64,000 nucleotides of DNA from Kineococcus mangrovi (GTDB lineage: Bacteria; Actinomycetota; Actinomycetes; Actinomycetales; Kineococcaceae), in contig NZ_JBGGTQ010000002.1 in assembly GCF_041320705.1 (NCBI RefSeq), forward strand, positions 372,001 through 436,000, in the 5' to 3' direction. Within the stretch, counting starts at the first letter, position 1; each line of letters begins with the position of its first letter. Shown here in pieces: positions 2 to 11,078 of the stretch. The notes beneath the pieces were generated by a model, which was not told the origin of the DNA, ran no database searches, and worked only from the letters and a program-made list of their open reading frames with translations. A program made the position numbers and the translations under genes.

Positions 2-883
2 GCGCAGGACGAGCTCATGGGCGAGATGGACGAGCTGCTGCGCGTCCAGCTCGCGGGCGAGGAGGCCGACTCCGCGCGCCAGCGCGCCTTCGAGGCGCAC
101 GCGGCCGCGATGAAGGTGGCCTCCACGTGGCACGCGACGCGGACGATCCAGACGTGCCGCGAGGCGTGCGGCGGCAACGGCTTCCTCGCCGACTCCCGGT
201 TGCCGCTGCTGAAGGCGGACACCGACGTGTTCACCACGTTCGAGGGCGACAACACCGTCCTGCTGCAGCTCGTCGCGAAGGGCCTGCTGACGAGCTACGC
301 CCAGCAGTTCTCCGACCTGGACACCCTGGGCATGGCCCGCTTCGCGACGAAGGACTTCATCTCCACCTACGCCGGGCGCAGCCCCGCGGCCTCGCTCGTC
401 GCGGACGTCGTCGAAGCCGGCCGCGCCCCCGACGACCTGCACGACCGGGCGTGGCAGATCCGGATGCTCACCGACCGGGAACGGCACGTGGTGGAGTCGC
501 TGGCCAAGCGCATGCGCAAGGCGCGCAGCAAGCCCGAGGGCGAGCGCTTCGCCGCCATCGACGACCTGCAGGACCACCTCCTGCTCGCCGGCCGGGCGCA
601 CACCGACCGCATCGTCGCCGAGGCGTTCGCCGCCGCGATCGCGCGGTGCGAGGACCCGGCCGTCGCGGCCCTGCTCTCCGACGTCTGCGACCTGCACGTG
701 CTGGCGCTGCTGGAGGCCGAGAAGGGCTGGTACCTGGAGCACCGCCGCATGACCACGTTGCGCGCCAAGGCCATCACGAGCGCCGTCAACGCGCTGTGCC
801 GCAAGCTGCGCCCGCGCACCGAGGAACTGCTCGCCGGGTTCGGGACGCCGCGGCACTGGCTGGGGTCGCGCCTGGTCGGCTGA
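2..883 (+). CDS. Acyl-CoA oxidase/dehydrogenase family protein, C-terminal part
   Basis: The reading frame is open from the left edge, so the N-terminus and start lie outside the window. The visible roughly 293 residues include the segment CREACGGNGF followed by TTFEGDNTVLLQLVAKGLL. This is the conserved C-terminal flavin-binding region of acyl-CoA oxidases and dehydrogenases (the CGG.G and FEGDN..L motifs). A long helical tail follows, which is more typical of peroxisomal-type acyl-CoA oxidases than of short-chain dehydrogenases. By family it would catalyse the first, FAD-dependent oxidation step of fatty acyl-CoA beta-oxidation. The substrate chain length cannot be judged. The next gene on the same strand begins 52 bases downstream. 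Confidence 0.85.
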   Translation, partial: AQDELMGEMDELLRVQLAGEEADSARQRAFEAHAAAMKVASTWHATRTIQTCREACGGNGFLADSRLPLLKADTDVFTTFEGDNTVLLQLVAKGLLTSYAQQFSDLDTLGMARFATKDFISTYAGRSPAASLVADVVEAGRAPDDLHDRAWQIRMLTDRERHVVESLAKRMRKARSKPEGERFAAIDDLQDHLLLAGRAHTDRIVAEAFAAAIARCEDPAVAALLSDVCDLHVLALLEAEKGWYLEHRRMTTLRAKAITSAVNALCRKLRPRTEELLAGFGTPRHWLGSRLVG

Positions 884-935: not shown

Positions 936-1985
936 GTGCACGGTGAGTACAAGGTCCCGGGCGGCAAGCTCGTCGTCGTCGACCTCGACGTCCGGGACGG
1001 CCGGCTCGCCGACGTCCGGCTGAGCGGGGACTTCTTCCTCGAACCCGACGACGCCCTGGAGTCGATCGACGCGGCCCTGACGGGGTTGCCGGCCGACGCG
1101 GAGGCGGCCGACGTCGCCGGCCGGGTCCGTTCGGCCCTGCCCCGCGGCGCGGTGCTCCTGGGGTTCACCCCCGAGGCCGTCGCGACGACGGTCCGCCGCG
1201 CCGTCGGCGGGGCCACCGGCTGGCTCGACCACGACTGGCGGTTCGTCCACACCGGTCCGCAGTCCCCGCTGACGCACATGGCCCTCGACGAGGTGCTGAC
1301 GCGGGAGGTGGCCGCGGGCCGGCGCGGGCCGACCCTGCGGGTGTGGGAGTGGGCGAGCCCGGCCGTCGTCCTCGGCAGCTTCCAGTCCGTGCTCAACGAG
1401 GTGGACCGCGAGGCCGCCGACCGGCTCGGGGTCGAGGTCGTGCGCCGGGTCTCCGGGGGCGGGGCGATGTTCGTCGAACCCGGGAACACCATCACGTACT
1501 CGCTCTACGCACCGGGTTCCCTCGTCGAGGGCCTGAGCTTCACCGAGTCCTACGCGTTCCTCGACGACTGGGTGCTCGTCGCCCTCGGCGACCTGGGGGT
1601 CAGGGCCTGGTACCAGCCCATCAACGACATCACGACCGACCAGGGCAAGATCGCCGGGGCGGCGCAGAAGCGGCTCGGTGACGGGACCGTCCTGCACCAC
1701 GTGACGATGTCCTACGACATCGACGCCGCGAAGATGCTGCAGGTCCTGCGGATCGGCCGGGAGAAGCTGTCGGGCAAGGGGCTGGCCAGCGCCGCCAAGC
1801 GCGTCGACCCCCTGCGCCGGCAGACGGGCCTGCCGCGCGAGGAGGTCATCGACTCGATGGTCGCGACGTTCCGCCGCCAGTACGGGCTGACCGACGGGCC
1901 GCTGACGGAGGCCGAGCTCGCCGCGGCGGGCGAGCTCGTGCGCACGAAGTTCGCGACGCCGGCGTGGACCGGCCGCATCCCCTGA
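936..1985 (+). CDS. Lipoate-protein ligase A family protein with N-terminal accessory domain
   Basis: 349 residues from a GTG start. Residues 1 to about 85 resemble the small accessory domain usually found at the C-terminus of LplA (a GKLV.VD motif, then a helical part). The catalytic biotin/lipoate transferase domain follows, with THMALDEVL, RRVSGGGAMFVEPGN and a ligand-binding lysine in ITTDQGKIAGAAQKR. The order of the two domains is therefore reversed relative to E. coli LplA. The likely role is attachment of lipoate or octanoate to E2 or GcvH domains, and the glycine-cleavage gene gcvT lies elsewhere in this window. The exact donor is not decidable from sequence. Its stop codon lies 2 bases from the convergent CoA-transferase gene. 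Confidence 0.8.
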   Translation: MHGEYKVPGGKLVVVDLDVRDGRLADVRLSGDFFLEPDDALESIDAALTGLPADAEAADVAGRVRSALPRGAVLLGFTPEAVATTVRRAVGGATGWLDHDWRFVHTGPQSPLTHMALDEVLTREVAAGRRGPTLRVWEWASPAVVLGSFQSVLNEVDREAADRLGVEVVRRVSGGGAMFVEPGNTITYSLYAPGSLVEGLSFTESYAFLDDWVLVALGDLGVRAWYQPINDITTDQGKIAGAAQKRLGDGTVLHHVTMSYDIDAAKMLQVLRIGREKLSGKGLASAAKRVDPLRRQTGLPREEVIDSMVATFRRQYGLTDGPLTEAELAAAGELVRTKFATPAWTGRIP

Positions 1986-1987
1986 GG

Positions 1988-2626
1988 TCAGCCTCCGGCC
2001 ACCGTGAACGCGGCCCCCGTCAGCGCGCGCAAGGATTCGACGTCCTCCCCCTCGGCGACGTCGACGAGCACCAACCCGGCGTCGGTGACGTCGAACACCG
2101 CCCGGTCGGTGATGACGCGGTCCACGACGCCCTTCCCGGTCAACGGCAGGTCGCACTCCTGCACGAGCTTGGGCGACCCGTCGCGGGCGACGTGCTCCAT
2201 GACGACGACGACGCGCGGGGTCCCGGCGACGAGGTCCATCGCCCCGCCCATGCCCTTGACCATCTTCCCCGGCACCTGCCAGTTCGCGAGGTCGCCGCAC
2301 GCCGACACCTGCAGCGCACCGAGGACGGCGACGGCGACGTGGCCGCCACGGATCATCCCGAAGCTCGTCGCCGAGTCGAACACGCTGCCGCCCGGCAGGA
2401 TCGTCACCGTCTGCTTGCCGGCGTTGACGAGGTCGGGGTCCTCCTCCCCCTCGTAGGGCCAGGGGCCCGTGCCGAGCAGGCCGTTCTCGCTCTGCAGCAC
2501 GACGCGGACCCCGGGCGGCAGGTGGTTGGCCACCAGGGTGGGGATGCCGATGCCGAGGTTCACGTGGTCACCGTCGCGCAGCTCCGCGGCGGCGCGGGCG
2601 GCCATCTGCGCACGCGACCAGGTCAC
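1988..2626 (-). CDS. 3-oxoacid CoA-transferase family, subunit B
   Basis: 212 residues from a GTG start. The protein carries the class I CoA-transferase beta-subunit signature: [14 protein letters not shown] near the N-terminus and [12 protein letters not shown], in which Glu47 is the expected glutamyl-CoA nucleophile. It pairs with the alpha subunit encoded immediately upstream, whose stop overlaps this start by 4 bp. The enzyme moves CoA from succinyl-CoA (or acetyl-CoA) to an organic acid. As the last gene of a ring-cleavage operon it probably activates the final acid of that pathway. Family members include PcaIJ and ScoAB; sequence alone does not choose the substrate. Confidence 0.88.
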
Positions 2627-3336
2627 GTGCCCACCTCCTCGCGCCGGCGGACCGTGCGTTGCTCCACGGGTCTGTCGCGGTCGGTCCGCACGACCGACGT
2701 CACGAAGACCCCGGGGGTGTGGACGTCGTCGGGGTGCAGGAAACCCCCCTCGTCCAGGACGCGCTCGGCCTCGACGACCGTGACGGGTGCCGCGGTGGCG
2801 ACCAGCGGGTTGAAGTTCCTGGCCGTGAGCCGGTAGCGCAGGTTCCCGGCGCGGTCGGCCGTCGCGGCGTGGACGAGCGCGAGGTCGGCGACGATCCCGC
2901 GCTCCTGCAGGTAGGTGCGACCGTCGAACTCCGCGGTCGGTTTCCCCTCGGCCACGGTCGTCCCGACGCCGGTGGGGGTGTAGAACGCGGGGATCCCGGC
3001 GCCGCCGGCGCGCAGCCGTTCGGCGAGGGTCCCCTGGGGCACGAACTCGACGTCGAGGTCACCGTCGAGGTAGCGCCGGGCGAACAGCTTGTTCTCGCCC
3101 ACGTAGGAGGCGAGGACCTTGACCACCTGGTCGTTCTCCAGGAGAACGCCGAGGCCCTGTCCGTCCACCCCCATGTTGTTCGAGACGATCGTCAGGTCGC
3201 GGACCCCGGAGTCCCGCACGGCGTCGACGAGCGCGAACGGCACCCCGCACAACCCGAAACCGCCGACGGCGATCGTCATGCCGTCGCGCAGGACCCCGGC
3301 CAGCGCCTGCGCCGGGCTCTCCAGCAGCCTGCTCAC
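2623..3336 (-). CDS. 3-oxoacid CoA-transferase family, subunit A
   Basis: 237 residues. I chose the GTG at 3336 because the protein then begins as family members do and the start overlaps the stop of the upstream FAH gene by 4 bp. Visible motifs are the glycine-rich [15 protein letters not shown] near residue 25, the NNMGVDG turn, and the CoA-binding GVGT and LALVHAA regions. This is the non-catalytic CoA-binding alpha subunit that partners the beta subunit encoded next to it. The frame remains open well upstream, but that extension is arginine-rich shadow sequence inside the FAH gene and has no family similarity. Confidence 0.88.
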
Positions 3337-4343
3337 GCCGCCCGCCCCCCGTTCCTCTCGCGCCGGCGCGACCGGGCACGGGCTCGGGGCACGACCGGCA
3401 GGTCCGTCAGGTCCGAGCCGGCGACCACCCTGTTCTCCACGCTCCCGATGCCCTCCACGTCCAGCCGCACGACGTTGCCCGGCCGCAGCGGCGGCGGGTC
3501 CTGGCGGCCCCGACGTCCCCACAGCTCGGCCAGGCACCCGCCGTTGCCGCAGGTCCCCGACCCCAGCACGTCACCGGGACGCACCCACGTCCCCCGGGAG
3601 GCGTAGGCGATCATCTCCTCGAACGTCCAGCCCGCGTTCGACAGCAGGTCGTGCCCGACCTGCTCCCCGTCGATCGAGGCCCGCAGCCGCAGGGCGAGGA
3701 AACCTTCCTCGTCGCGGAACCCCTCCAGCTCGTCGGGGGTGACGATCCACGGCCCGAGCGTCGTGGCCGAGTCCTTGCCCTTGGCCGGCCCGAGGTTGAC
3801 CTTCATCTCGCGCCGCTGCAGGTCACGGGCCGACCAGTCGTTGAGGACGGTGTAGCCGAACACGTGCCGCGCGGCCCGTGCCGGGTCCACGTCGCGGCCG
3901 GCGGCGCCGACGACGACGGCGACCTCGAGCTCGAAGTCGAAGGCGGCGCACCCGGGCGGGACGGGGACGTCGTCGTGGGCGCCGACGAGCCCGTGCGGGT
4001 TCGTGAAGTAGAACGTCGGCGCCTGGTACCACTCGGGGGCCACCCCGCCCCCGGCGGCGCCGTCGACGCTGCGGACGACCCCCTCGACGTGCTCCTCGAA
4101 GGTGACGAAGTCGCGCACCGACGGCGGCTGGACGGGGGGCAGCAACCGGACGGAGGACACCGGGACGGCGTCGCTGGACCGCAACGCCCAGTCGGTCGCC
4201 TCCCGCGCCGCGCCGTGGTCCCCCCCGGCCAGGTCGACGACGGTCGTCGTGCCCCGCAACGCGTGCAGCACCTCGGCGCCGGGGTCGCCGGCGACGGCGG
4301 CCGTGACCTCGCGGCCCTGGAGGAGAGCCCGGGCGAACCTCAC
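3333..4343 (-). CDS. Fumarylacetoacetate hydrolase (FAH) family protein
   Basis: 336 residues from a GTG at 4343 whose bases overlap the upstream stop codon. The C-terminal FAH fold is clear. FELEVAVVVG supplies the paired glutamates of the metal site and NDWSARDLQ the aspartate region, followed by GKDSATTLGPWIVTPDEL and a GSGTCGNGG loop that contributes to the active site. FAH-family enzymes hydrolyse C-C bonds of acylpyruvates or act as hydratases/decarboxylases on ring-cleavage products, usually with Mg or Mn. In this operon it most likely acts on the product of the alpha/beta hydrolase or extradiol dioxygenase. Confidence 0.88.
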   Translation of the reverse strand: MRFARALLQGREVTAAVAGDPGAEVLHALRGTTTVVDLAGGDHGAAREATDWALRSSDAVPVSSVRLLPPVQPPSVRDFVTFEEHVEGVVRSVDGAAGGGVAPEWYQAPTFYFTNPHGLVGAHDDVPVPPGCAAFDFELEVAVVVGAAGRDVDPARAARHVFGYTVLNDWSARDLQRREMKVNLGPAKGKDSATTLGPWIVTPDELEGFRDEEGFLALRLRASIDGEQVGHDLLSNAGWTFEEMIAYASRGTWVRPGDVLGSGTCGNGGCLAELWGRRGRQDPPPLRPGNVVRLDVEGIGSVENRVVAGSDLTDLPVVPRARARSRRRERNGGRAA

Positions 4344-5482
4344 GCCGGCACCTCCACGAGAGCGGAGATGCGCCGCAGCAACCCCGGGACGTCGGCCTGC
4401 TCGCGCGGGGTGCGGTCGAGCATCCAGCGCCCGATCTGCACCGACGCGTCCACCACCTGGCGCGCCCGGTCCCGCCGTCGGTCGGCGTAGCGGACCAGGA
4501 CGTCCTCGTCCCACACCGGGGCCTGCAGCAGCAGGTCGGCCAGGACGGCGGAGTCCTCCAGCGCCTGCGCGGCCCCCTGCGCGATGGTGGGCGGGCAGGA
4601 GTGCACGGCGTCCCCGACGAGCACCACGCGGCCGCGGTGCCAGGGCCCCTCGACGAGGTGGGTCTCGAAACGCGTGTAGTTCACGGGCGTGTCCGCGGTC
4701 AGGCTGTCCCGCAGCGCGTCCCAGGGCCCGTGGTAGGCCGAGGCGAGACCGCGCACGACCTCGACCTGCTCGGCGCGGGTGAGCCCGGAACGGTCCTGCA
4801 CGTCCTCGACGAGGTAGGCGTAGACCGAGTCCGGCCCCGTCGGGCAGTACCCCGCGATGTGGCAGGGCCCCCCGTAGGTGAGGTCGGTGCGGACGACGTC
4901 GGCGGGCCGGGGCAGGCTCACCCGCCAGATGCCCATGCCCGTGCCCTCGGGTTCGGCGTCGATGCCGACGGTGCGGCGCGTCCACGAGCGGATCCCGTCG
5001 GCGCCGACGACGAGGTCGTACCGGCGGGCCGCAGCGTCGGAGAACGTCACGTCGACGCCGTCGGCGTCCTGCTCCAGCCCGGTCGCCGCGACCCCGAGGC
5101 GCAGCCTCGCCCCGGCCTCGACCGCGAGGTCGAGCACGATCCCCGCGAGGGCGGGCCGGGACATGCCCAGGGTCGCGGGCAGGTCCGGGCCACCCGTGCG
5201 GACGTCCGGCACCTCGGCCAGCAGCGTCCCGGCCGCGTCGGGGGCGCGCAGGCCCAGGGAGTCGAAGGCGAACCCGCGCGCCGACACCTCCGGCCAGGCC
5301 CCCAGGTCGCGCAGCACCCGCAGGGCGTTGCCCTGCAGGGTGATGCCGGACCCGGTGTCGGTCGTGCCGGGCCGGGCCTCGACGACCTCGACCTCCACCC
5401 CGGACCGGGCCAGCAGGACGGCCGCGGCGCAACCGGCGACGCCGGCCCCCACGACGAGGACGGAACGAACGGCGGGCGTCAT
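4340..5482 (-). CDS. FAD-dependent aromatic-ring monooxygenase family
   Basis: 380 residues with the class A flavoprotein hydroxylase layout. The N-terminal dinucleotide-binding loop is VVGAGVAG (residues 9-16), followed by an acidic residue in VVEARPG. The DG fingerprint LVVGADGIRS lies near residue 160, and GDAVHSCPPTIAQGAAQALED, which binds the FAD ribityl chain, near residue 290. Such enzymes insert one oxygen from O2 into phenolic or pyridine rings using NAD(P)H. Its place in the operon suggests it hydroxylates the aromatic substrate to give the diol for ring cleavage. The substrate is unknown. The stop overlaps the next start by 4 bp. Confidence 0.87.
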   Translation of the reverse strand: MTPAVRSVLVVGAGVAGCAAAVLLARSGVEVEVVEARPGTTDTGSGITLQGNALRVLRDLGAWPEVSARGFAFDSLGLRAPDAAGTLLAEVPDVRTGGPDLPATLGMSRPALAGIVLDLAVEAGARLRLGVAATGLEQDADGVDVTFSDAAARRYDLVVGADGIRSWTRRTVGIDAEPEGTGMGIWRVSLPRPADVVRTDLTYGGPCHIAGYCPTGPDSVYAYLVEDVQDRSGLTRAEQVEVVRGLASAYHGPWDALRDSLTADTPVNYTRFETHLVEGPWHRGRVVLVGDAVHSCPPTIAQGAAQALEDSAVLADLLLQAPVWDEDVLVRYADRRRDRARQVVDASVQIGRWMLDRTPREQADVPGLLRRISALVEVPA

Positions 5483-5508
5483 CGCCCCACCTCCTCAGGA
5501 TCGTCGGA

Positions 5509-6501
5509 CTACTTCAGGGCCAGCGGGTTCAGGGGCGCACCGACCGCCCCCGTGACGGGCAGCGGGGCCGCGACGAGGAGGAACTCGTGCACGCCGTCCG
5601 CGGCGCAGTCGGCGGCGAGCTCCTCCAGCGCCCACATCTCCCCGACGAACAGACCCATGTTGGGGATCACCACCTGGTGCAGCGGCTGGAACGCCACGTC
5701 GAACTCGTTCGGTCGGACCTCGAAGCCCCACGTGTCCGTCGCCACGGCCGCGACGTCGTGCGCGTGCAGCCAGTCGGCCGTCCGGAACGACATCCCGGGG
5801 GCGGGTCCCCCGGCGTAGTCACCCCAGCCCTCGCGCAGCACGCGGCCGTACTGGCCGGTGCGGACCAGCAGCAGGTCCCCCGCCCCCACCTCGAGGCCCT
5901 GCGCGGCGCAGGTGGCGTCGAGGTGCTCGGGGGTGATCGCGAAACCGTCCGGGAGTTCCCCGCCCGTCCCGGCCGGGTCGTCCCCGAACAGCCGGCCGAC
6001 GTCGAGCAGCACACCGCGGCCGGCGAAGTCGGCCGCGACCGTCTCGATCCCCGTCACCCCGTCACCGAGGGACGTCACGACGGCCCCCGCCCGGCGGCCG
6101 TTCCAGGCACGGCCGTGGTCGAAGATGTGCCCGAGCCCGTCCCACTGCGTCGAGCACTGCAGCGGCATCGCGACCACGTCGTCGGCGCCGCCGATGCCGT
6201 GCGGGAACCCCTGGACCCCCGCCTCGGCGTCGGTCCCCGTGTCCAGCATGGTGTGCACCGGGTTGGTGCGGCGACGCCAGCCCTTCTGCGGCCCGTCCAC
6301 GGAGAACTGCTGGGCCAGGGAGAACACGCGCCCCCGCCGGACGAGTCCGGCCGCGGCGCGACGGTGCTCGTCCGTGATGAGGTTCAAGGTCCCCTTGACG
6401 TCGTCCTCGCCCCAGCGGCCCCAGTTCGAGACGCGGGTGACGGCCGCCGCCACCGCCCCCTCGGGGTCGGTGCGGTCCGGCGCCAGGGGTCCGGCCGTCA
6501 C
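5509..6501 (-). CDS. Cyclase-family (kynurenine formamidase-like) hydrolase
   Basis: 330 residues. The sequence matches the larger members of the cyclase family (PF04199). It has a WG..D..GTLNLIT N-terminal region, the metal-site stretch STQWDGLGHIFD, where the canonical HxGTHxDxPxH motif is degenerate, and a C-terminal EVRPNEFDVAFQPLHQVVIPNMG. Family members are metal-dependent hydrolases of amides, esters or lactones, such as kynurenine formamidase and isatin hydrolase. In this operon it may open a lactone or hydrolyse an amide intermediate. Replacement of the first motif histidine is common in this subgroup, so activity should not be assumed lost. Confidence 0.82.
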   Translation of the reverse strand: MTAGPLAPDRTDPEGAVAAAVTRVSNWGRWGEDDVKGTLNLITDEHRRAAAGLVRRGRVFSLAQQFSVDGPQKGWRRRTNPVHTMLDTGTDAEAGVQGFPHGIGGADDVVAMPLQCSTQWDGLGHIFDHGRAWNGRRAGAVVTSLGDGVTGIETVAADFAGRGVLLDVGRLFGDDPAGTGGELPDGFAITPEHLDATCAAQGLEVGAGDLLLVRTGQYGRVLREGWGDYAGGPAPGMSFRTADWLHAHDVAAVATDTWGFEVRPNEFDVAFQPLHQVVIPNMGLFVGEMWALEELAADCAADGVHEFLLVAAPLPVTGAVGAPLNPLALK

Positions 6502-7652
6502 GACGTGCTCCCGCCGAGGCGTTCGGCGACCCAGTCGGCGATGAGGTCGGTGGCCACCGCCCCGTTGTCGACGCTGGAGTGCGCGGTGCCGCCCGTGCGG
6601 TCGGTGAACACCACGAGTTCACGGTCCGGGGAGTTCACGAGCTGCTCGTACGTGCGGTGCGCGTACCGCAGCGGGATCTGCCGGTCGTGCTCCCCGTGGG
6701 TGACGAGGAACGGGACGCGGATGCGGTCCAGGACCCCGTCGAGGTGCACGCGTTCGGCGACCTCGAAGAAGTCGTCGAGGTCCTCGGTGCCCCAGACCCA
6801 CTGCACGTGGTCCCAGTAGTGCGGCACGGGCCGCTCACCCTCGCGCTCGCGGCGCGCCTTCTGCACCGCGCGCCAGTCGTGGTTGGCGCCCCAGGCCACG
6901 CCGAGGGCGAAGCGGGGTTCGAACGCGACCGCCCGTGGCGCGTAGTACCCGCCGAGGGAGACGCCGAGCAGGCCGACGCGGTCGGCGTCCACGTCCTCGC
7001 GCGCGGCGAGGAACTCGTAGACCGGGCTGGCCCAGCGCTCGGACTCCGGGACGGCGTGCAGGTCGTGCAACCGCAGCGCCTCCCCCGTGCCCGGCTGGTC
7101 CAGGGACAGCGTGGAGACCCCGCGGGCGGCGAGCTTGGCGCCCGGACCGGTGCGGTGGAGCATCTCCTTGGTCGAGTCCAGGCCGTTCACCATGACGAGC
7201 AGGGGTTTCGGGCCGTCACCGGGGGCCCGGGTCAGGATCCCCGACAGGACGGTCCCCTCGTAGGGGATCTCGACGCGTTCGGCGTTCTCCCGCGCCAGCT
7301 CGACGCCGCGGTCGAACGTCCGCCGGAACTTGGCGTACAGCGCGACGCGCGGGGCGTGCCCGGCGGCCTGCATGCGCTCGCCCGTGAGGAAGTAGGTCGC
7401 GGCACGACCCAGCTTCTGGCCCGCGGACAGCAGGCGGCCGGCGGCCTCGTCCTCGGCGGCCAGCTCGACGAGGGTGTCCCCCTGCGCCTCCCAGGCCGCC
7501 ATGAGCTCGGCGGTGCCGGCGTCCTCGCCGCGGGAGGCGGCCTCCAGGAGCGGGCGGCAGACCGTGTCGACCTCACCGATGCGCGCCCCCATCTCCATGG
7601 CGAGGTTCACGGAGAGGTTCCACACGTAGTTCCCGGGGAAGTACTGGAACAC
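6498..7652 (-). CDS. Alpha/beta-hydrolase of the C-C or ester hydrolase type
   Basis: 384 residues. An N-terminal helical cap of about 125 residues precedes the alpha/beta-hydrolase core. The nucleophile elbow is GVSLGG with Ser232, the acid is probably the aspartate in THGEHDRQIPL, and the histidine lies in GGTAHSSVDN. Overall design and length recall 2,6-dihydroxypseudooxynicotine hydrolase and related C-C bond hydrolases, which use a helical N-terminal region. Together with the neighbouring extradiol dioxygenase it probably cleaves a carbon-carbon bond of a ring-fission product or an acylated aromatic. The stop overlaps the start of the cyclase gene by 4 bp. Confidence 0.83.
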   Translation of the reverse strand: MFQYFPGNYVWNLSVNLAMEMGARIGEVDTVCRPLLEAASRGEDAGTAELMAAWEAQGDTLVELAAEDEAAGRLLSAGQKLGRAATYFLTGERMQAAGHAPRVALYAKFRRTFDRGVELARENAERVEIPYEGTVLSGILTRAPGDGPKPLLVMVNGLDSTKEMLHRTGPGAKLAARGVSTLSLDQPGTGEALRLHDLHAVPESERWASPVYEFLAAREDVDADRVGLLGVSLGGYYAPRAVAFEPRFALGVAWGANHDWRAVQKARREREGERPVPHYWDHVQWVWGTEDLDDFFEVAERVHLDGVLDRIRVPFLVTHGEHDRQIPLRYAHRTYEQLVNSPDRELVVFTDRTGGTAHSSVDNGAVATDLIADWVAERLGGSTS

Positions 7653-7662
7653 GACGGCCCCC

Positions 7663-8688
7663 TCAGCCCTGGCCCTGGAGGGCGTACGGGTTCAGCAGCG
7701 CCTCCTCGGTGCCGGGCAGGACGCCCTCCTCCGTGGCGGTGGGGCGACCCGGGTCCGGCGGGAAGGACTCGGTCATCGACATCGGCATGGCGCCGTTGCG
7801 GTAGATGCTGTTCGACCCCATCGACGGCTTCCAGGTGTTCGGCTCCCAGTCCGGCACGTAGTTGCGGTAGCCGCCGGTGTTGAGCTCGACGCGCATGCCG
7901 CCGGGTTCGCGGAAGTACAGGAACGTCTGCTCCCCGACCCCGTGGATGGACGGGCCGTACTCGATGTCGACCCCGTTCTCCATGAGGACGTCCGCGGCCA
8001 CGAGGAGCTCCTGGTGGCTGTCGGTCCAGAACGCGACGTGGTTGACGCGACCGCCGAGCTGGGAGGAGTCCAGCACGCAGCCGAGGTCGTGGGACTTCTC
8101 GTTCGTCGTGAGGACGCCGAACACCGTGACGGGCGCGTGGTCGAGCTCGGTGAACGCCATGGTGCGGAACCCGAGCACCTTCGAGTACCAGGCCGCGAAA
8201 CCCTTGACGTCGGTGGCCGCGACGGTGACGTGGTCGAGGAACCGGGGCGCCGCGGCGTGCGAGGAGCGCTTCTCCGGACGGTCGGGGAACACCGAGACCA
8301 GCCCGGCCGGCGCCGAGTGCCTCGGGACGTCCCAGTAGACCTCCATGGTGTGGCCGTAGGGGCCCGTGAAGCGGAACGAGCGGCCGTGTCCCTGCCGCCC
8401 CTGCGACCAGGTGCCCTCGACGCCCTCGGCGGCCACGCGGCGCGCGACCTCCTCGACGGCGTCCTCGCTCGTGGTGCGCCAGGCCATCGTCAGCAGAGCC
8501 GGCTGCTCGCCCGGCGTCACGACGAGGCTGTACGGGTAGTGGTCGCCCCAGCAGCGCAGGTAGGCGCTGCCCTCGTCGTCGCGGTGGACCTCGCGCAGAC
8601 CGAAACCCTTCTCGAAGAAGGTGACCGACGCGTCGACGTCGGGAGAGGAGATCTCCAGGTGGGCGAGGTGGGCCAGCAGGTTCGTCAT
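7663..8688 (-). CDS. Extradiol ring-cleavage dioxygenase (VOC superfamily)
   Basis: 341 residues with two vicinal-oxygen-chelate repeats. The iron ligands expected of type I extradiol dioxygenases are present: His153 (FLDHVTVA), His217 (RVNHVAFW) and Glu268 (GMRVELN). These match the usual H-H-E spacing of catechol 2,3-dioxygenases. I chose ATG 8688 because a GAGGA ribosome site lies about 7 bases upstream; an in-frame start at 8712 is possible. The family cleaves catechols next to the two hydroxyls with Fe(II) and O2. It is the first gene of a seven-gene operon running to 1988 and defines that operon as an aromatic catabolic pathway. Confidence 0.9.
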   Translation of the reverse strand: MTNLLAHLAHLEISSPDVDASVTFFEKGFGLREVHRDDEGSAYLRCWGDHYPYSLVVTPGEQPALLTMAWRTTSEDAVEEVARRVAAEGVEGTWSQGRQGHGRSFRFTGPYGHTMEVYWDVPRHSAPAGLVSVFPDRPEKRSSHAAAPRFLDHVTVAATDVKGFAAWYSKVLGFRTMAFTELDHAPVTVFGVLTTNEKSHDLGCVLDSSQLGGRVNHVAFWTDSHQELLVAADVLMENGVDIEYGPSIHGVGEQTFLYFREPGGMRVELNTGGYRNYVPDWEPNTWKPSMGSNSIYRNGAMPMSMTESFPPDPGRPTATEEGVLPGTEEALLNPYALQGQG

Positions 8689-8833
8689 CGAACGGTCCTC
8701 TCGAACGGTCATCTCTGGTGCGTCGTGGGCGGCGCGGGCGCCGGGGCCGTCCCGGAGGCGCTGCGTCGCGGCCTGGCAGCACTCTCCGCCACGCCGGAGG
8801 CATCAGGGAAGGTCGACTTGGCGATGCCGGTCA

Positions 8834-10048
8834 TCACGTTCGTTGATGCCGTGCGGGCTGTCGGACCACGGCCAGCACCGCGGCCACGGCGAGCGCCGCG
8901 ACGGCGACCGCCGCCAGGGCCGCCGGCAACCCACCCAGCACGTCCGCGAGCCCCAGGACGAGCAGCGGGCAGACGAACTCCCCGCCGAACAACGCCGAGG
9001 TCCACCAGCCCGTGGCCCGGCCGCGCTGCTCGGTCCCGACCCCTCCGAGGGCCCACGTCAGCAGCACCGGCAGGAGCAGGCCCGTGCCGGCCGACGCCAC
9101 CGCCGCTCCCGCCAGCAGCGCGGGCACCGACCCCGCGAGCGCCACCCCGACGAGACCGGCGCCGGCCAGGGCGAAGGCCACGGGCAGCAGCGGACGTGAG
9201 CCCCGCTGCCGGTGCCGGGCCAGCCGGGCGAAGGACGCCGCCCCCACGCACGTGGCCACGGCGGCCGCCGCGCTCACCGCGCCGATCGTCGCGGTCGACT
9301 CCACCCCGATCCGGTCGAGGGCGAAGGAGAGCTCGACGACGGGGGTGTAGAACACGATCCCGCCCACGAACGTCACCAGCAGCGGGACGCGCAACCCCCG
9401 CAGGTCCAGCGGGGGCAGCGGACCGGACCGCACGGCGACGGGTTCGCGCAGCAGGACGGGCACCAGCACGGCGCCGAGGAACCCGACGGCGTACAGCCAG
9501 AACGGGGTGCGCCAGTCGTGCGCGGCCAGCGCCCCGCCCGCGGCGATGAACACGACGGCGGACAGGCTCGTCGCCACCGTCTGCAGAGCGAAGCAGCGGT
9601 TGCGCCGTTCCCCCTCGAACAGGTCGCCGATGAGCGTCGTGCAGCACGTCATGACACCGGCCTCCGCGATGCCGACGAGGGCGCGACTGGCCACGATCGC
9701 GGGCAGCAGGTCCAGCCAGAGCGGGGCCGTCCCGACGACGGCGTAGAGGACGAGCGAGGCGGTGAGCACCCGCACGCGCCCGACGCGGTCCACGACGCGA
9801 CCGGCGACGGGGGCCAGCAGGGCGATCGCCAGGGCGGGGACCGTGAGCGTCAGCGGGACGAGCGCGTCGAGACCGGGTTGGCCGGCGAAGGCGCGGGCGA
9901 TGCTCGGCTGCACCGGCGCGATGAGCACCGCACCGAGCACGGCCAGCGTGCTGAGGGCGACGAGCAGGGCGGCCTGCGGCGCCCCCGCGCGCGGGGGTCC
10001 GGCGGCGGGAGCGCGGCGGGAGAGGGACGTGGGAGAGGAACTGGACAC
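8834..10048 (-). CDS. Major facilitator superfamily transporter
   Basis: 404 residues from GTG 10048, preceded by a perfect AGGAGG ribosome site 5 bases away. About 12 hydrophobic segments can be counted, with the MFS loop 2-3 pattern GRVVDRVGRVRVL and a charged central loop (LRGLRVP). MFS proteins are proton-coupled or uniport carriers. The gene sits between a LysR regulator and the ring-cleavage operon, all on the same strand, so uptake of the aromatic substrate is a reasonable guess. Efflux cannot be excluded. Confidence 0.85.
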   Translation of the reverse strand: MSSSSPTSLSRRAPAAGPPRAGAPQAALLVALSTLAVLGAVLIAPVQPSIARAFAGQPGLDALVPLTLTVPALAIALLAPVAGRVVDRVGRVRVLTASLVLYAVVGTAPLWLDLLPAIVASRALVGIAEAGVMTCCTTLIGDLFEGERRNRCFALQTVATSLSAVVFIAAGGALAAHDWRTPFWLYAVGFLGAVLVPVLLREPVAVRSGPLPPLDLRGLRVPLLVTFVGGIVFYTPVVELSFALDRIGVESTATIGAVSAAAAVATCVGAASFARLARHRQRGSRPLLPVAFALAGAGLVGVALAGSVPALLAGAAVASAGTGLLLPVLLTWALGGVGTEQRGRATGWWTSALFGGEFVCPLLVLGLADVLGGLPAALAAVAVAALAVAAVLAVVRQPARHQRT

Positions 10049-10145
10049 GGGAACCTCCTGGGAGGGCCTGCTCCGTCGCAGGCGGTACCGGGAGTTTCGA
10101 CGACCCGCTGCACCCCGGTACAGCGCGAATCGCTGAGGTTCCCCA

Positions 10146-11078
10146 TCAGCGCGGTGGATGCCCCTCGACGTCGGGCAGCGTCGCGGCGGCCCGCCGGACG
10201 AGGTCGCGCAACCACGCGTGCTCGGGGTCGGCGGTGTACACGGGGTGCCACCACATCGCCTCGAGCAGCAGCCCGACGTCGACCGGCAGGGGCAGCGCCC
10301 GGACCCCGGAACCCGGGGGCAGCCGGTCGGCCAACCGCTGCTGCAGCAGGCCGAACCGCGCACTGCCGGCGACGAGGGCGGGGACGGTGAGGAAGTGCTC
10401 GGTGACGACCTGCACGTGGGGTTCGACGCCGAGCATGCGCATCTGCAGAGCGGCCGGGGTCGAGGCGACGGGCCCGTGGTAGGTCACGACCCAGGGCGTG
10501 GTGCGCAGCTGGTCGACGGTGAGCTCGTCGCCGACGTCGGGGTTCTCGGTGGCGACCAGGCACACCCAGCGGTCGCGGTGCAGGTCCTGGTGCGGCAGGT
10601 CGGTGAGGAAACCGTGCGGCAGCAGGAGCAGGTCCGCGTCGACGAGGACGCGTTCGGCGTCCTCCACGACGGGCGGGGTGTTGACGCTGAACCGCAGGCG
10701 CATCCGGGGTGCCTCGAGCGCGAGCAGGGCCGTCAACGGGCCACCCAGGACGGTCTCGGCGTAGTCGCTGCTGACGATGCGCAGGTCGCGCTCGGAGGAG
10801 GCCGGGTCGAAGTCGGGTTCGGCGCGGAACACCCGTTCGACGCCGGACAGCGCGACCCGCACCTGCTCGCGCAGCCGCACGGCCAACGGTGTCAGCTCGT
10901 GCTCGTTGCCGACGCGGGTCAGCAGCGGGTCGTCGAAGTGCCGCCGCAGCCGGGCCAGCGACGCCGACAGCGCGGGCTGGCTCAGCCCGAGCCGTTGCGC
11001 GGCGCGCGTGACGCTGCGCTCCTGCAGCAGCGCCTCCAGCGGCACGAGCAGGTTGAGGTCGAGCGAGCGCAGGTTCAC
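10146..11078 (-). CDS. LysR-family transcriptional regulator
   Basis: 310 residues from GTG 11078. The N-terminal winged helix-turn-helix is clear: LDLNLLVPLEALLQERSVTRAA followed by LGLSQPALSASLARLR and the PLLTR wing. A periplasmic-binding-like effector domain follows from about residue 90, with DLRIVSSDYAETVLG. It most resembles the NodD/LinR-like subgroup, whose members often control aromatic or flavonoid catabolism. It probably senses an intermediate of the adjacent pathway and controls the transporter and the ring-cleavage operon immediately downstream on the same strand. Autoregulation from the 11079-11167 gap is likely but not shown. Confidence 0.88.
   Translation of the reverse strand: MNLRSLDLNLLVPLEALLQERSVTRAAQRLGLSQPALSASLARLRRHFDDPLLTRVGNEHELTPLAVRLREQVRVALSGVERVFRAEPDFDPASSERDLRIVSSDYAETVLGGPLTALLALEAPRMRLRFSVNTPPVVEDAERVLVDADLLLLPHGFLTDLPHQDLHRDRWVCLVATENPDVGDELTVDQLRTTPWVVTYHGPVASTPAALQMRMLGVEPHVQVVTEHFLTVPALVAGSARFGLLQQRLADRLPPGSGVRALPLPVDVGLLLEAMWWHPVYTADPEHAWLRDLVRRAAATLPDVEGHPPR

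What the first reader, a model, noticed from the sequence alone, without database searches (positions are those of the whole stretch)
1988..8688. Seven-gene ring-cleavage operon with no obvious known substrate
The order extradiol dioxygenase, helical-cap alpha/beta hydrolase, cyclase-family hydrolase, FAD monooxygenase, FAH hydrolase, CoA-transferase A and B is compact (most junctions overlap). It contains every step needed to hydroxylate, cleave, hydrolyse and CoA-activate an aromatic or N-heteroaromatic. It lacks the usual semialdehyde dehydrogenase, hydratase and aldolase of the standard meta pathway. A cyclase-family amide/lactone hydrolase and a hydrolase resembling the pseudooxynicotine type suggest a heterocycle or acylated polyphenol. 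This is the best candidate in the window for an undescribed pathway.
Basis: partly seen in the sequence, partly recalled or inferred. Interest (0 to 1): 0.62.

Follow-up and report, generated by a model that had tools for sequence, protein, structure and literature searches.

The report
Actinobacterial flavonoid-like ring-cleavage operon
A seven-gene bacterial operon that probably breaks down plant flavonoid-type compounds by opening their phloroglucinol ring and dismantling what is left; it resembles a pathway known from Gram-negative bacteria, but several of its enzymes differ.

Summary
The operon is real: seven minus-strand genes at 1988-8688, four of six junctions overlapping by 4 nt, conserved in 6 of 10 other genomes of the genus and in the one same-family genome examined. 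MFS and LysR genes lie directly upstream. Its alpha/beta hydrolase is 63% identical to the hydrolase in the fdeB position of a Herbaspirillum fde (flavonoid-degradation) cluster. The FMO shares an NCBIfam subfamily with the FdeE-position protein, but that subfamily is not limited to fde clusters. Candidate LysR operators carry ATC-N9-GAT, the nod-box motif. Dioxygenase and cyclase are not FdeC- or FdeG-like and FdeD/FdeH/FdeJ matches are missing nearby, so it works like Fde but is not a member. New here: related clusters carry either this hydrolase or an acylpyruvase-like FAH plus an ACMSD-like decarboxylase, never both (10 against 10), which fits two ways of removing the opened ring. The operon's own FAH carries the fumarylacetoacetase signature beside a 3-oxoacid CoA-transferase, suggesting a flavone tail (aryl carboxylate + acetoacetate); its whole-protein profile scores are mixed. 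The substrate is untested. Verdict: new variant of a known kind.

The parts
7663..8688 (-). Type I extradiol ring-cleavage dioxygenase, catechol 2,3-dioxygenase-like (341 aa); proposed to cleave the C8-C8a bond of an 8-hydroxylated A ring
   Evidence: Pfam Glyoxalase; TIGR03211 239 bits, cut-off 320; columns H153, H217, E268, H200, H249, Y258 invariant in 10 aligned proteins (their roles as ligands and catalytic residues are recalled). Only 21-22% identical to three fde-cluster VOC proteins
6498..7652 (-). FdeB-like alpha/beta hydrolase (384 aa, GTG start); proposed C-C hydrolase removing the opened A-ring side chain
   Evidence: 63.4% identity over 385 columns to the Herbaspirillum aquaticum fde-cluster hydrolase; S232, D323, H358 invariant in 12 aligned sequences, itself included; best solved relative 2jbw
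5509..6501 (-). Cyclase-family (PF04199) hydrolase (330 aa); proposed lactone (pyrone) opener
   Evidence: PF04199 75.5 bits; CSTQWDGLGH in 10 of 11 homologues searched, with Gln where FdeG has His in 11 of 11
4340..5482 (-). Group A FAD monooxygenase (380 aa); proposed C8 hydroxylase of the A ring
   Evidence: NCBIfam PRK06847 404 bits, cut-off 372, next family 138; H. aquaticum FdeE-position protein 537 bits to the same family, but so do FMOs outside fde clusters (L040 457; L042 422); GAGVAG and GDAVHSCP motifs
3333..4343 (-). FAH-family hydrolase with fumarylacetoacetase-type signature (336 aa); proposed 3,5-dioxo acid hydrolase giving aryl carboxylate + acetoacetate
   Evidence: PF01557; best solved match 5ti1, fumarylacetoacetate hydrolase; NDWSARD(L/I)Q...LGP..(G/A)K signature as in 6 of 6 fumarylacetoacetases and 16 of 16 rows of its own group; profile scores mixed
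2623..3336 (-). 3-oxoacid CoA-transferase subunit A
   Evidence: TIGR02429 246 bits, cut-off 128.5
1988..2626 (-). 3-oxoacid CoA-transferase subunit B
   Evidence: TIGR02428 320 bits, cut-off 243.55; a second copy in the genome lies near a pcaF-like thiolase
8834..10075 (-). MFS transporter, likely uptake or efflux of substrate
   Evidence: PF07690 128 bits; between LysR and dioxygenase in 5 of 7 loci
10146..11078 (-). LysR-type regulator
   Evidence: PF00126 and PF03466; 37% to the H. aquaticum FdeR-position regulator over 302 aa; adjacent in 6 of 7 loci
8833..8847 (.). ATC-N9-GAT palindrome, candidate LysR operator upstream of the dioxygenase gene
10145..10159 (.). ATC-N9-GAT palindrome, candidate LysR operator at the LysR-MFS junction (overlaps the LysR stop)
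   Evidence: the only other copy in the 64-kb window

Best explanation
A LysR-regulated catabolic operon that degrades a flavonoid-type compound (5,7-dihydroxychromone core) by A-ring meta cleavage, analogous to Fde/Ifc of Gram-negative bacteria but with partly different enzymes. Proposed order (all inferred; none shown biochemically): (1) the FMO hydroxylates C8. (2) The dioxygenase cleaves C8-C8a; because C8a carries the ring oxygen, this leaves a lactone with a 2,4-dioxo acid (acylpyruvate) side chain on C4a. (3) The FdeB-like hydrolase cleaves the C4a-C5 carbon-acyl bond, releasing oxaloacetate and the C-ring lactone (6-aryl-4-hydroxy-2-pyrone from a flavone, 6-aryl-oxane-2,4-dione from a flavanone). 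(4) The cyclase-family protein opens the lactone to a 3-oxo acid. (5) For flavones, the FAH splits the 3,5-dioxo acid into an aryl carboxylate and acetoacetate. (6) The CoA-transferase activates acetoacetate (or, for flavanones, the 3-oxo acid itself) for a thiolase. Shown by computation: gene content, families, conservation, candidate operators, conserved putative active-site residues, and the exchange of the hydrolase for an acylpyruvase-like FAH plus an ACMSD-like protein in relatives.
For: Hydrolase: 63.4% to the hydrolase in a cluster of H. aquaticum ordered like fdeR-A...J; of the 80 loci kept for this hydrolase, 77 also have an FdeC-type VOC match, 75 an FdeE-type FMO match, 75 a Rieske match. 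FMO: same NCBIfam subfamily as the FdeE-position protein, far ahead of other families. Operators: ATC-N9-GAT 18 times in 2,850 bp of operator regions against 31 times in 307,335 bp elsewhere, in 12 of 13 loci, with variable centres; it is the nod-box palindrome (PMC5596368, passages); FdeR is called NodD-like in a cited title and binds naringenin, chrysin and daidzein (PMC10799723, passages). Exchange: 10 clusters with the hydrolase have no amidohydrolase match, 10 with amidohydrolase + second FAH have no hydrolase match; the amidohydrolase's nearest solved relative is an ACMSD decarboxylase (E 8.7e-48), the second FAH's a 2,4-diketo acid hydrolase (E 2e-42). Both routes balance to the same lactone. 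The operon FAH has the fumarylacetoacetase signature, the second FAH does not. A thiolase directly follows the CoA-transferase in L026 and L029. Published daidzein intermediates X2 and X3 (PMC11069340) fit C8-C8a cleavage and loss of a C4H4O4 unit.
Against: No substrate or induction data. FMO is only 35-39% identical to FdeE-type proteins, and the shared NCBIfam subfamily is not specific: an FMO of a Streptomyces cluster that looks biosynthetic (L042, 38.8% to the window FMO; 422 bits) and one in Bradyrhizobium without fde neighbours (L040, 457 bits) also pass. The dioxygenase is not FdeC-like; cyclase and FdeG give no BLAST match. FdeD, FdeH and FdeJ give no match in the first 20 kb of the window. 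The operon FAH group scores slightly better with an acylpyruvase-like profile than with a fumarylacetoacetase profile in 13 of 16 rows (that profile holds one misread row). In Variovorax, disruption of the DHPONH-like hydrolase gene 59470 did not affect daidzein degradation; daidzein lacks the 5-OH that would make the bond an acyl bond, but this is my reading. IfcA homologues were reported only from Proteobacteria. Many Pseudomonas loci have hydrolase, VOC and FMO matches without cyclase or FAH in the fetched stretch. The LysR's best solved relatives are LysR-type regulatory proteins 2uyf/5ae4 (DntR by recall), not a flavonoid sensor. The cyclase has Gln for one His of the usual motif. L140 has no ATC-N9-GAT in the tested region, and only 1 of 4 fde-type regions has an exact copy.
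Confidence: 0.45

Rival explanations
1. Same chemistry, other substrate: a non-flavonoid acylphloroglucinol, alkylchromone or hydroxycoumarin whose phenolic ring is ortho-hydroxylated, meta-cleaved and removed by the FdeB-like hydrolase.
Against: ATC-N9-GAT operators and an FdeR-like LysR and the fde link favour flavonoids; all seven genes have a role on a flavone.
Confidence: 0.32
2. An N-heteroaromatic (nicotine- or pyridine-like) pathway.
For: Best solved relative of the hydrolase is 2,6-dihydroxypseudooxynicotine hydrolase; best solved relative of the FMO is 6-hydroxynicotinate 3-monooxygenase.
Against: Those matches are weak (87 and 99 bits) beside 63% identity to the fde-cluster hydrolase; none of the nine proteins scanned is a molybdenum hydroxylase or amine oxidase.
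Confidence: 0.05
3. A monocyclic-phenol meta pathway feeding the beta-ketoadipate route, with the CoA-transferase acting as PcaIJ on 3-oxoadipate.
For: CoA-transferase belongs to the PcaIJ/ScoAB families; some related clusters have a thiolase that resembles PcaF.
Against: The genome has a second CoA-transferase B (C2:217831) near its best pcaF match (C2:219170) and intradiol dioxygenase genes at C1:568977; 3-oxoadipate formation needs no FdeB-like hydrolase, cyclase-family protein or FAH (recalled).
Confidence: 0.12

Closest known systems
fde (flavonoid degradation) operon of Herbaspirillum seropedicae; compared here through H. aquaticum L122
   Same: LysR regulator, FdeB-position alpha/beta hydrolase (63%), FMO of the same NCBIfam subfamily (36-37%), an extradiol dioxygenase of the VOC superfamily, a PF04199 protein and an FAH-family protein together
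   Different: Dioxygenase and cyclase of other subfamilies; no FdeD, FdeH or FdeJ match nearby; 3-oxoacid CoA-transferase added; FAH only 33% to FdeI over 178 aa
ifc isoflavone cluster of Variovorax sp. V35 (PMC11069340)
   Same: FMO, VOC dioxygenase and DHPONH-like hydrolase genes together; A-ring cleavage with loss of a C4 unit
2,6-dihydroxypseudooxynicotine hydrolase (2jbw), nicotine pathway
   Same: Related hydrolase; cleaves a C-C bond next to a carbonyl on an electron-rich ring (bond type recalled)
   Different: Weak sequence match (86.7 bits)
Catechol meta-cleavage pathway
   Same: Dioxygenase closest to the catechol 2,3-dioxygenase model (239 bits, below its cut-off)
   Different: No semialdehyde dehydrogenase, hydratase or aldolase in the operon
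Tail of homogentisate/tyrosine catabolism (fumarylacetoacetase, then acetoacetate CoA-transferase; recalled)
   Same: FAH with the fumarylacetoacetase signature beside a 3-oxoacid CoA-transferase
   Different: FAH far below the fumarylacetoacetase cut-off (78 against 375 bits)

Membership tests
Fde flavonoid-degradation operon | FdeB-position alpha/beta hydrolase | tested here: met
   63.4% over 385 columns to H. aquaticum; in a 38-row tree the genus clade and Deinococcus join the fde-type group at 96/97
Fde flavonoid-degradation operon | FdeE-type FAD monooxygenase | tested here: inconclusive
   Both over the PRK06847 cut-off (404 and 537 against 372), but FMOs outside fde clusters also pass (L040, L042); pairwise identity 36-37%
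Fde flavonoid-degradation operon | FdeC-type ring-cleavage dioxygenase | tested here: not met
   21-22% identity to three fde-cluster VOC proteins; C23O-like instead
Fde flavonoid-degradation operon | FdeD Rieske protein | tested here: not met
   No match at 1e-8 in the first 20 kb of the window
Fde flavonoid-degradation operon | FdeG-type cyclase | tested here: not met
   PF04199 member, but no BLAST match to FdeG at 1e-3 and Gln for His in the motif
Fde flavonoid-degradation operon | Cupin FdeH and FdeJ | tested here: not met
   No match at 1e-8 in the first 20 kb
Fde flavonoid-degradation operon | NodD-like FdeR with LTTR boxes | tested here: inconclusive
   LysR 37% to the FdeR-position protein; ATC-N9-GAT sites present here, but only 1 of 4 fde-type regions has an exact copy
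Fde flavonoid-degradation operon | Acts on naringenin or another flavonoid | not testable with these tools
   Needs enzyme assay or growth test
Nicotine-pathway DHPON hydrolase | Hydrolase clearly closest to DHPON hydrolase | tested here: not met
   86.7 bits to 2jbw against 63% identity to the fde-cluster hydrolase
Catechol 2,3-dioxygenase | Score over the TIGR03211 cut-off | tested here: not met
   239 against 320 bits
Type I extradiol dioxygenase | Conserved two-His one-carboxylate set and catalytic residues | tested here: met
   H153, H217, E268, H200, H249, Y258 invariant in 10 rows; roles recalled
Fumarylacetoacetase | Score over the TIGR01266 cut-off | tested here: not met
   78 against 375 bits; signature segment shared with 6 of 6 fumarylacetoacetases
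3-oxoacid CoA-transferase (ScoAB/PcaIJ) | Both subunits over the family cut-offs | tested here: met
   246 against 128.5 and 320 against 243.55 bits

The most novel reading that the evidence does not exclude
The operon is a complete, previously undescribed Gram-positive route for flavones: 8-hydroxylation, C8-C8a cleavage, removal of the opened A ring as oxaloacetate, pyrone opening, and a fumarylacetoacetase-like cut to aryl carboxylate and acetoacetate, the latter activated by a dedicated CoA-transferase. In related Actinobacteria the A-ring removal step is done by an interchangeable two-enzyme module (acylpyruvase + ACMSD-like decarboxylase) that yields the same pyrone with pyruvate and CO2 instead of oxaloacetate.
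Probability: 0.25. Interest if true: 0.65.

Novelty: new variant of a known kind. Interest (0 to 1): 0.48.

Why it matters
In the papers I found, bacterial A-ring flavonoid catabolism is described at gene level only for Proteobacteria. An actinobacterial version would widen who consumes plant signalling flavonoids. The exchange of the hydrolase for an acylpyruvase-like FAH plus an ACMSD-like decarboxylase is a genomic clue to the least resolved step of the known pathway: Aoki et al. state that the gene for X2 to X3 remained to be identified. It gives testable assignments for proteins that the records call only 'cyclase family', 'prolyl oligopeptidase family', 'FAH family' or 'VOC family'.

Tried and rejected
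Nicotine/pyridine reading: considered because of the 2jbw and 6-hydroxynicotinate monooxygenase matches; set aside on the strength of the fde-cluster match.

PcaIJ reading of the CoA-transferase: weakened by a second copy near the genome's best pcaF match.

LigY-type C-C hydrolase for the amidohydrolase of related clusters: considered; its match to the meta-cleavage compound hydrolase 6e6i (56 bits) is far below ACMSD (166 bits), so decarboxylase preferred. A paper search on LigY found none.

Paper searches for an actinobacterial flavonoid A-ring operon: (0 papers; 2 listed; 14 listed; 48 papers, 20 listed; 1 listed) showed none, judged from titles and starts of abstracts. Marin 2013 and 2016 were not fetched; I know them from passages in other papers and recall.

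H. seropedicae SmR1 is not among the 80 kept loci; H. aquaticum stands in for it. The letters FdeB, F, G, H, I, J are assigned by gene order and recall; FdeA, C, D, E and R are named in passages seen.

FAH comparison: the tree is not used. Its row L155 was a wrong reading frame, and L154 and L156-L160 gave no row; two of these loci are held in reverse orientation. re-read 8 of the 12 loci by the match length and supersedes (L161 was not used; L151-L153 kept). Even so, row L159 of the acylpyruvase-like profile is misread. Whole-protein profile scores for the operon FAH group are mixed: fumarylacetoacetase profile 78-97 bits, acylpyruvase-like profile 76-118, the latter higher in 13 of 16 rows.

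Exclusivity count: 22 clusters tabulated; L034 and L004 show neither full pattern and were left out of the 10 against 10. L034's genome (G210) has a 42% hydrolase elsewhere. Eight of the ten hydrolase clusters are from one family; I estimate about three independent lineages against five.

Operator count: 13 loci with LysR beside the operon. Not tested: L031 (contig start) and L002, L003, L004, L033-L036, L142 (no LysR hit in the fetched stretch). Four fde-type regions tested (exact copy in 1) were left out of the count. The motif was first noticed in the window and then tested in the others; the window as a whole has no excess (2 found, 2.0 expected).


Full report
OBSERVATION. Directly upstream on the same strand are an MFS transporter (8834-10075) and a LysR regulator (10146-11078). 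The window lies at C2:372001-436000 of a 4.36-Mb, 23-contig genome. I take the genus to be Kineococcus by recall only; no call names it.

CONSERVATION. In 39 genomes a hydrolase match of 74% identity or more is present in 6 of 10 other same-genus genomes and in the one same-family genome, and in 0 of 27 other same-order genomes. All seven loci fetched (L026-L032) keep dioxygenase, hydrolase, cyclase, FMO and FAH in order at 67-95% identity; CoA-transferase A and B are within the stretch in 5 of 7 (not in L027 and L030). In 396 genomes of the phylum, its own included, strong matches are rare: dioxygenase (E<=1e-60) in 5, cyclase (E<=1e-80) in 8, hydrolase (E<=1e-80) in 3. Of the 7 other cyclase-bearing genomes, 6 have FMO and FAH matches near it; the seventh (G218) does not in its 11.5-kb stretch.

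LINK TO FLAVONOID DEGRADATION. Matches within these 80: FdeC-type VOC 77, LysR 76, Rieske 75, FMO 75, FAH 37, cyclase 34, epimerase 29, cupin 27, window-type CoA-transferase 1. One of them, Herbaspirillum aquaticum (L122), has the order regulator, FdeA-like, hydrolase, VOC, Rieske, FMO, MFS, cyclase, cupin, FAH, epimerase, which I identify with the fde operon. The window hydrolase is 63.4% identical to its hydrolase. The window FMO and the L122 FMO both exceed the cut-off of NCBIfam PRK06847 (404 and 537 bits against 372; next families 138 and 166). This subfamily is not specific: an FMO of a Streptomyces cluster that by its annotation looks biosynthetic (L042, 422 bits) and one of Bradyrhizobium without fde neighbours (L040, 457 bits) also pass. 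Published: FdeE belongs to the naringenin pathway and is active on flavanones, flavones, isoflavones and flavonols, giving C-8 hydroxyflavonoids (PMC11303751, passages); in Variovorax the FMO IfcA makes 8-hydroxydaidzein, IfcB (65.8% to FdeC) acts on it, and a DHPONH-like hydrolase gene lies in the cluster (PMC11069340, Results section; passages).

WHAT DIFFERS. The dioxygenase is C23O-like and only 21-22% identical to three fde-cluster VOC proteins, though the residues I recall as metal ligands and catalytic residues are invariant. The cyclase is of another PF04199 subfamily, with CSTQWDGLGH where FdeG has NGTHLDAPWH. FdeD, FdeH and FdeJ are not found in the first 20 kb. So it fails membership of Fde while resembling it in mechanism. 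In a 38-row hydrolase tree the genus clade groups with Deinococcus aetherius (94/81), and these with the proteobacterial fde-type hydrolases (96/97), apart from two other actinobacterial rows (L140, L009) and Rhizobium K84 (L004), which are long branches. Among the loci examined, the nearest relatives of cyclase, FMO and FAH are actinobacterial. This suggests a mosaic; direction of transfer is not shown.

EXCHANGE OF MODULES. Across clusters from Actinobacteria and Deinococcus the backbone of cyclase, FMO, dioxygenase and FAH (with LysR and CoA-transferase in some) varies at one point. Ten clusters (window, L026-L032, L140, L002) have the hydrolase and no amidohydrolase match at 1e-8. Ten (L003, L033, L035, L036, L037, L038, L141-L144) have an amidohydrolase (47-100% to the Arthrobacter one) and a second FAH (52-100% to the Nonomuraea one) and no hydrolase match. 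None of the 80 fde-type loci has an amidohydrolase match; seven show only 26-29% partial matches to the second FAH. The backbone itself is not uniform: L002 and L036 have an FdeG-type instead of the window-type cyclase, L035 has both. The two dioxygenase types assort independently: L140 has the hydrolase with the other dioxygenase, L003 and L033 have the window-type dioxygenase with the amidohydrolase. The amidohydrolase is closest to ACMSD, a decarboxylase of a ring-cleavage product (4ign, E 8.7e-48), then other decarboxylases; a meta-cleavage compound hydrolase follows at 56 bits. The second FAH is closest to L-2,4-diketo-3-deoxyrhamnonate hydrolase (8gsr, E 2e-42), with FAHD1 acylpyruvase among its matches. 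The two-route idea was entered in the notebook in the same batch as these searches, before their answers were seen.

MECHANISM. By established extradiol chemistry (recalled), cleavage between C8 and C8a of an 8-hydroxylated 5,7-dihydroxychromone gives a C8 carboxylate, a C7 ketone, a C5 ketone and a lactone at C8a; the side chain on C4a is then a 2,4-dioxo acid. Route 1: hydrolysis of the C4a-C5 carbon-acyl bond, the kind of bond that DHPON hydrolase cuts (recalled), gives oxaloacetate and a C11 lactone. Route 2: an acylpyruvase releases pyruvate, leaving a beta-keto acid that a decarboxylase turns into the same C11 lactone. All steps balance. The published daidzein intermediates X2 (m/z 301.0352) and X3 (203.0349, 2-hydroxy-5-(4-hydroxyphenyl)-4H-pyran-4-one) match C15H10O7 and C11H8O4 and differ by C4H4O4 after adding water, which I read as loss of C5-C8. 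The cyclase-family protein would open the lactone; for a flavone this gives 5-aryl-3,5-dioxopentanoate, of the form R-CO-CH2-CO-CH2-COOH like fumarylacetoacetate. The operon FAH and its relatives in these clusters (16 of 16 rows) carry NDWSARD(L/I)Q...LGP..GK; 6 of 6 fumarylacetoacetases carry NDWSARD(I/L)Q...LGPFL(G/A)K; 0 of 9 second-FAH rows do (they read ND.T.R), and the acylpyruvase-like rows read correctly have (N/H)DVSER. Whole-protein profiles are less clear: the operon FAH group scores 78-97 bits with a fumarylacetoacetase profile and 76-118 with an acylpyruvase-like one, the latter higher in 13 of 16; the second FAH scores 136-178 with the acylpyruvase-like profile and at most 17 with the other. 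So the second FAH is clearly acylpyruvase-like, the operon FAH is in between with a fumarylacetoacetase-type active-site segment. Products would be an aryl carboxylate and acetoacetate, and the neighbouring genes encode a 3-oxoacid CoA-transferase; in L026 and L029 a thiolase follows it directly. The genome has a second CoA-transferase near its best pcaF match and intradiol dioxygenase genes that could take the aryl carboxylate through protocatechuate (inference).

REGULATION. ATC-N9-GAT occurs twice in the 64-kb window, at 8833-8847 (before the dioxygenase gene) and 10145-10159 (LysR-MFS junction); 2.0 are expected by chance, so only the placement is notable. In loci with an adjacent LysR, 12 of 13 (window included) have at least one in the operator region: 18 copies in 2,850 bp against 31 in 307,335 bp outside. 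The loci are related, so the printed binomial value overstates; but the nine central bases differ between loci. L140 has none, and only 1 of 4 fde-type regions has an exact copy. The motif is the nod-box palindrome (PMC5596368, passages). FdeR is described as NodD-like in the title of a cited paper and as binding flavonoids (PMC10799723, passages). I recall that the motif occurs in a wider LysR subgroup; the best solved relatives of this LysR are 2uyf and 5ae4, LysR-type regulatory proteins (DntR by recall), and in plasmids its best matches are actinobacterial. So it supports control by this LysR, and only weakly a flavonoid inducer.

LIMITS. No enzyme, induction or growth data. FMO identity to FdeE-type is 35-39%. 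The Variovorax hydrolase mutant had no phenotype on daidzein. The fde letters beyond A, C, D, E, R are by order and recall. I put the detailed flavonoid reading at 0.45 and flavones as the main substrates at 0.25.

Noticed in passing
L054, L057, L059-L061 and other Pseudomonas loci: Pseudomonas loci carry FdeB-, FdeC-, FdeD- and FdeE-like matches with LysR and DUF1302/DUF1329/YCF48/MMPL genes, mostly without cyclase, FAH or cupin matches in the stretch (L110 has them); FMO 36-41% to the Burkholderia one. Possibly a different substrate.
   Followed up: no
L078 (Pseudomonas sp. ML96): The only one of 80 FdeB-type loci with a window-type CoA-transferase pair in the stretch.
   Followed up: no
L130:5078-13365 and L131:6945-16135 (Rhodococcus plasmids): LysR 47-49% identical to the window's, in clusters with VOC protein, FAH, amidohydrolase, FAD oxidoreductase, carboxymuconolactone decarboxylase and alpha/beta hydrolase genes: a further aromatic cluster whose substrate I do not know.
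   Followed up: partly
L002:12001-21118 (Deinococcus aetherius plasmid): A mixed cluster: window-type dioxygenase (66%) and hydrolase (67%) with an FdeG-type cyclase (41%), FdeE-like FMO (37%), SMP-30 protein and FdeJ-like epimerase (47%).
   Followed up: partly
L123:8734-12142, just left of the window, and window 17-883: A thiolase with reductase- and dehydratase-like ORFs and an acyl-CoA dehydrogenase-like ORF, the latter named from translations only; a possible beta-oxidation set near the operon.
   Followed up: no
window 936-1985 (+): Lipoate-protein ligase-like ORF convergent with the operon's end; named from its translation only.
   Followed up: no
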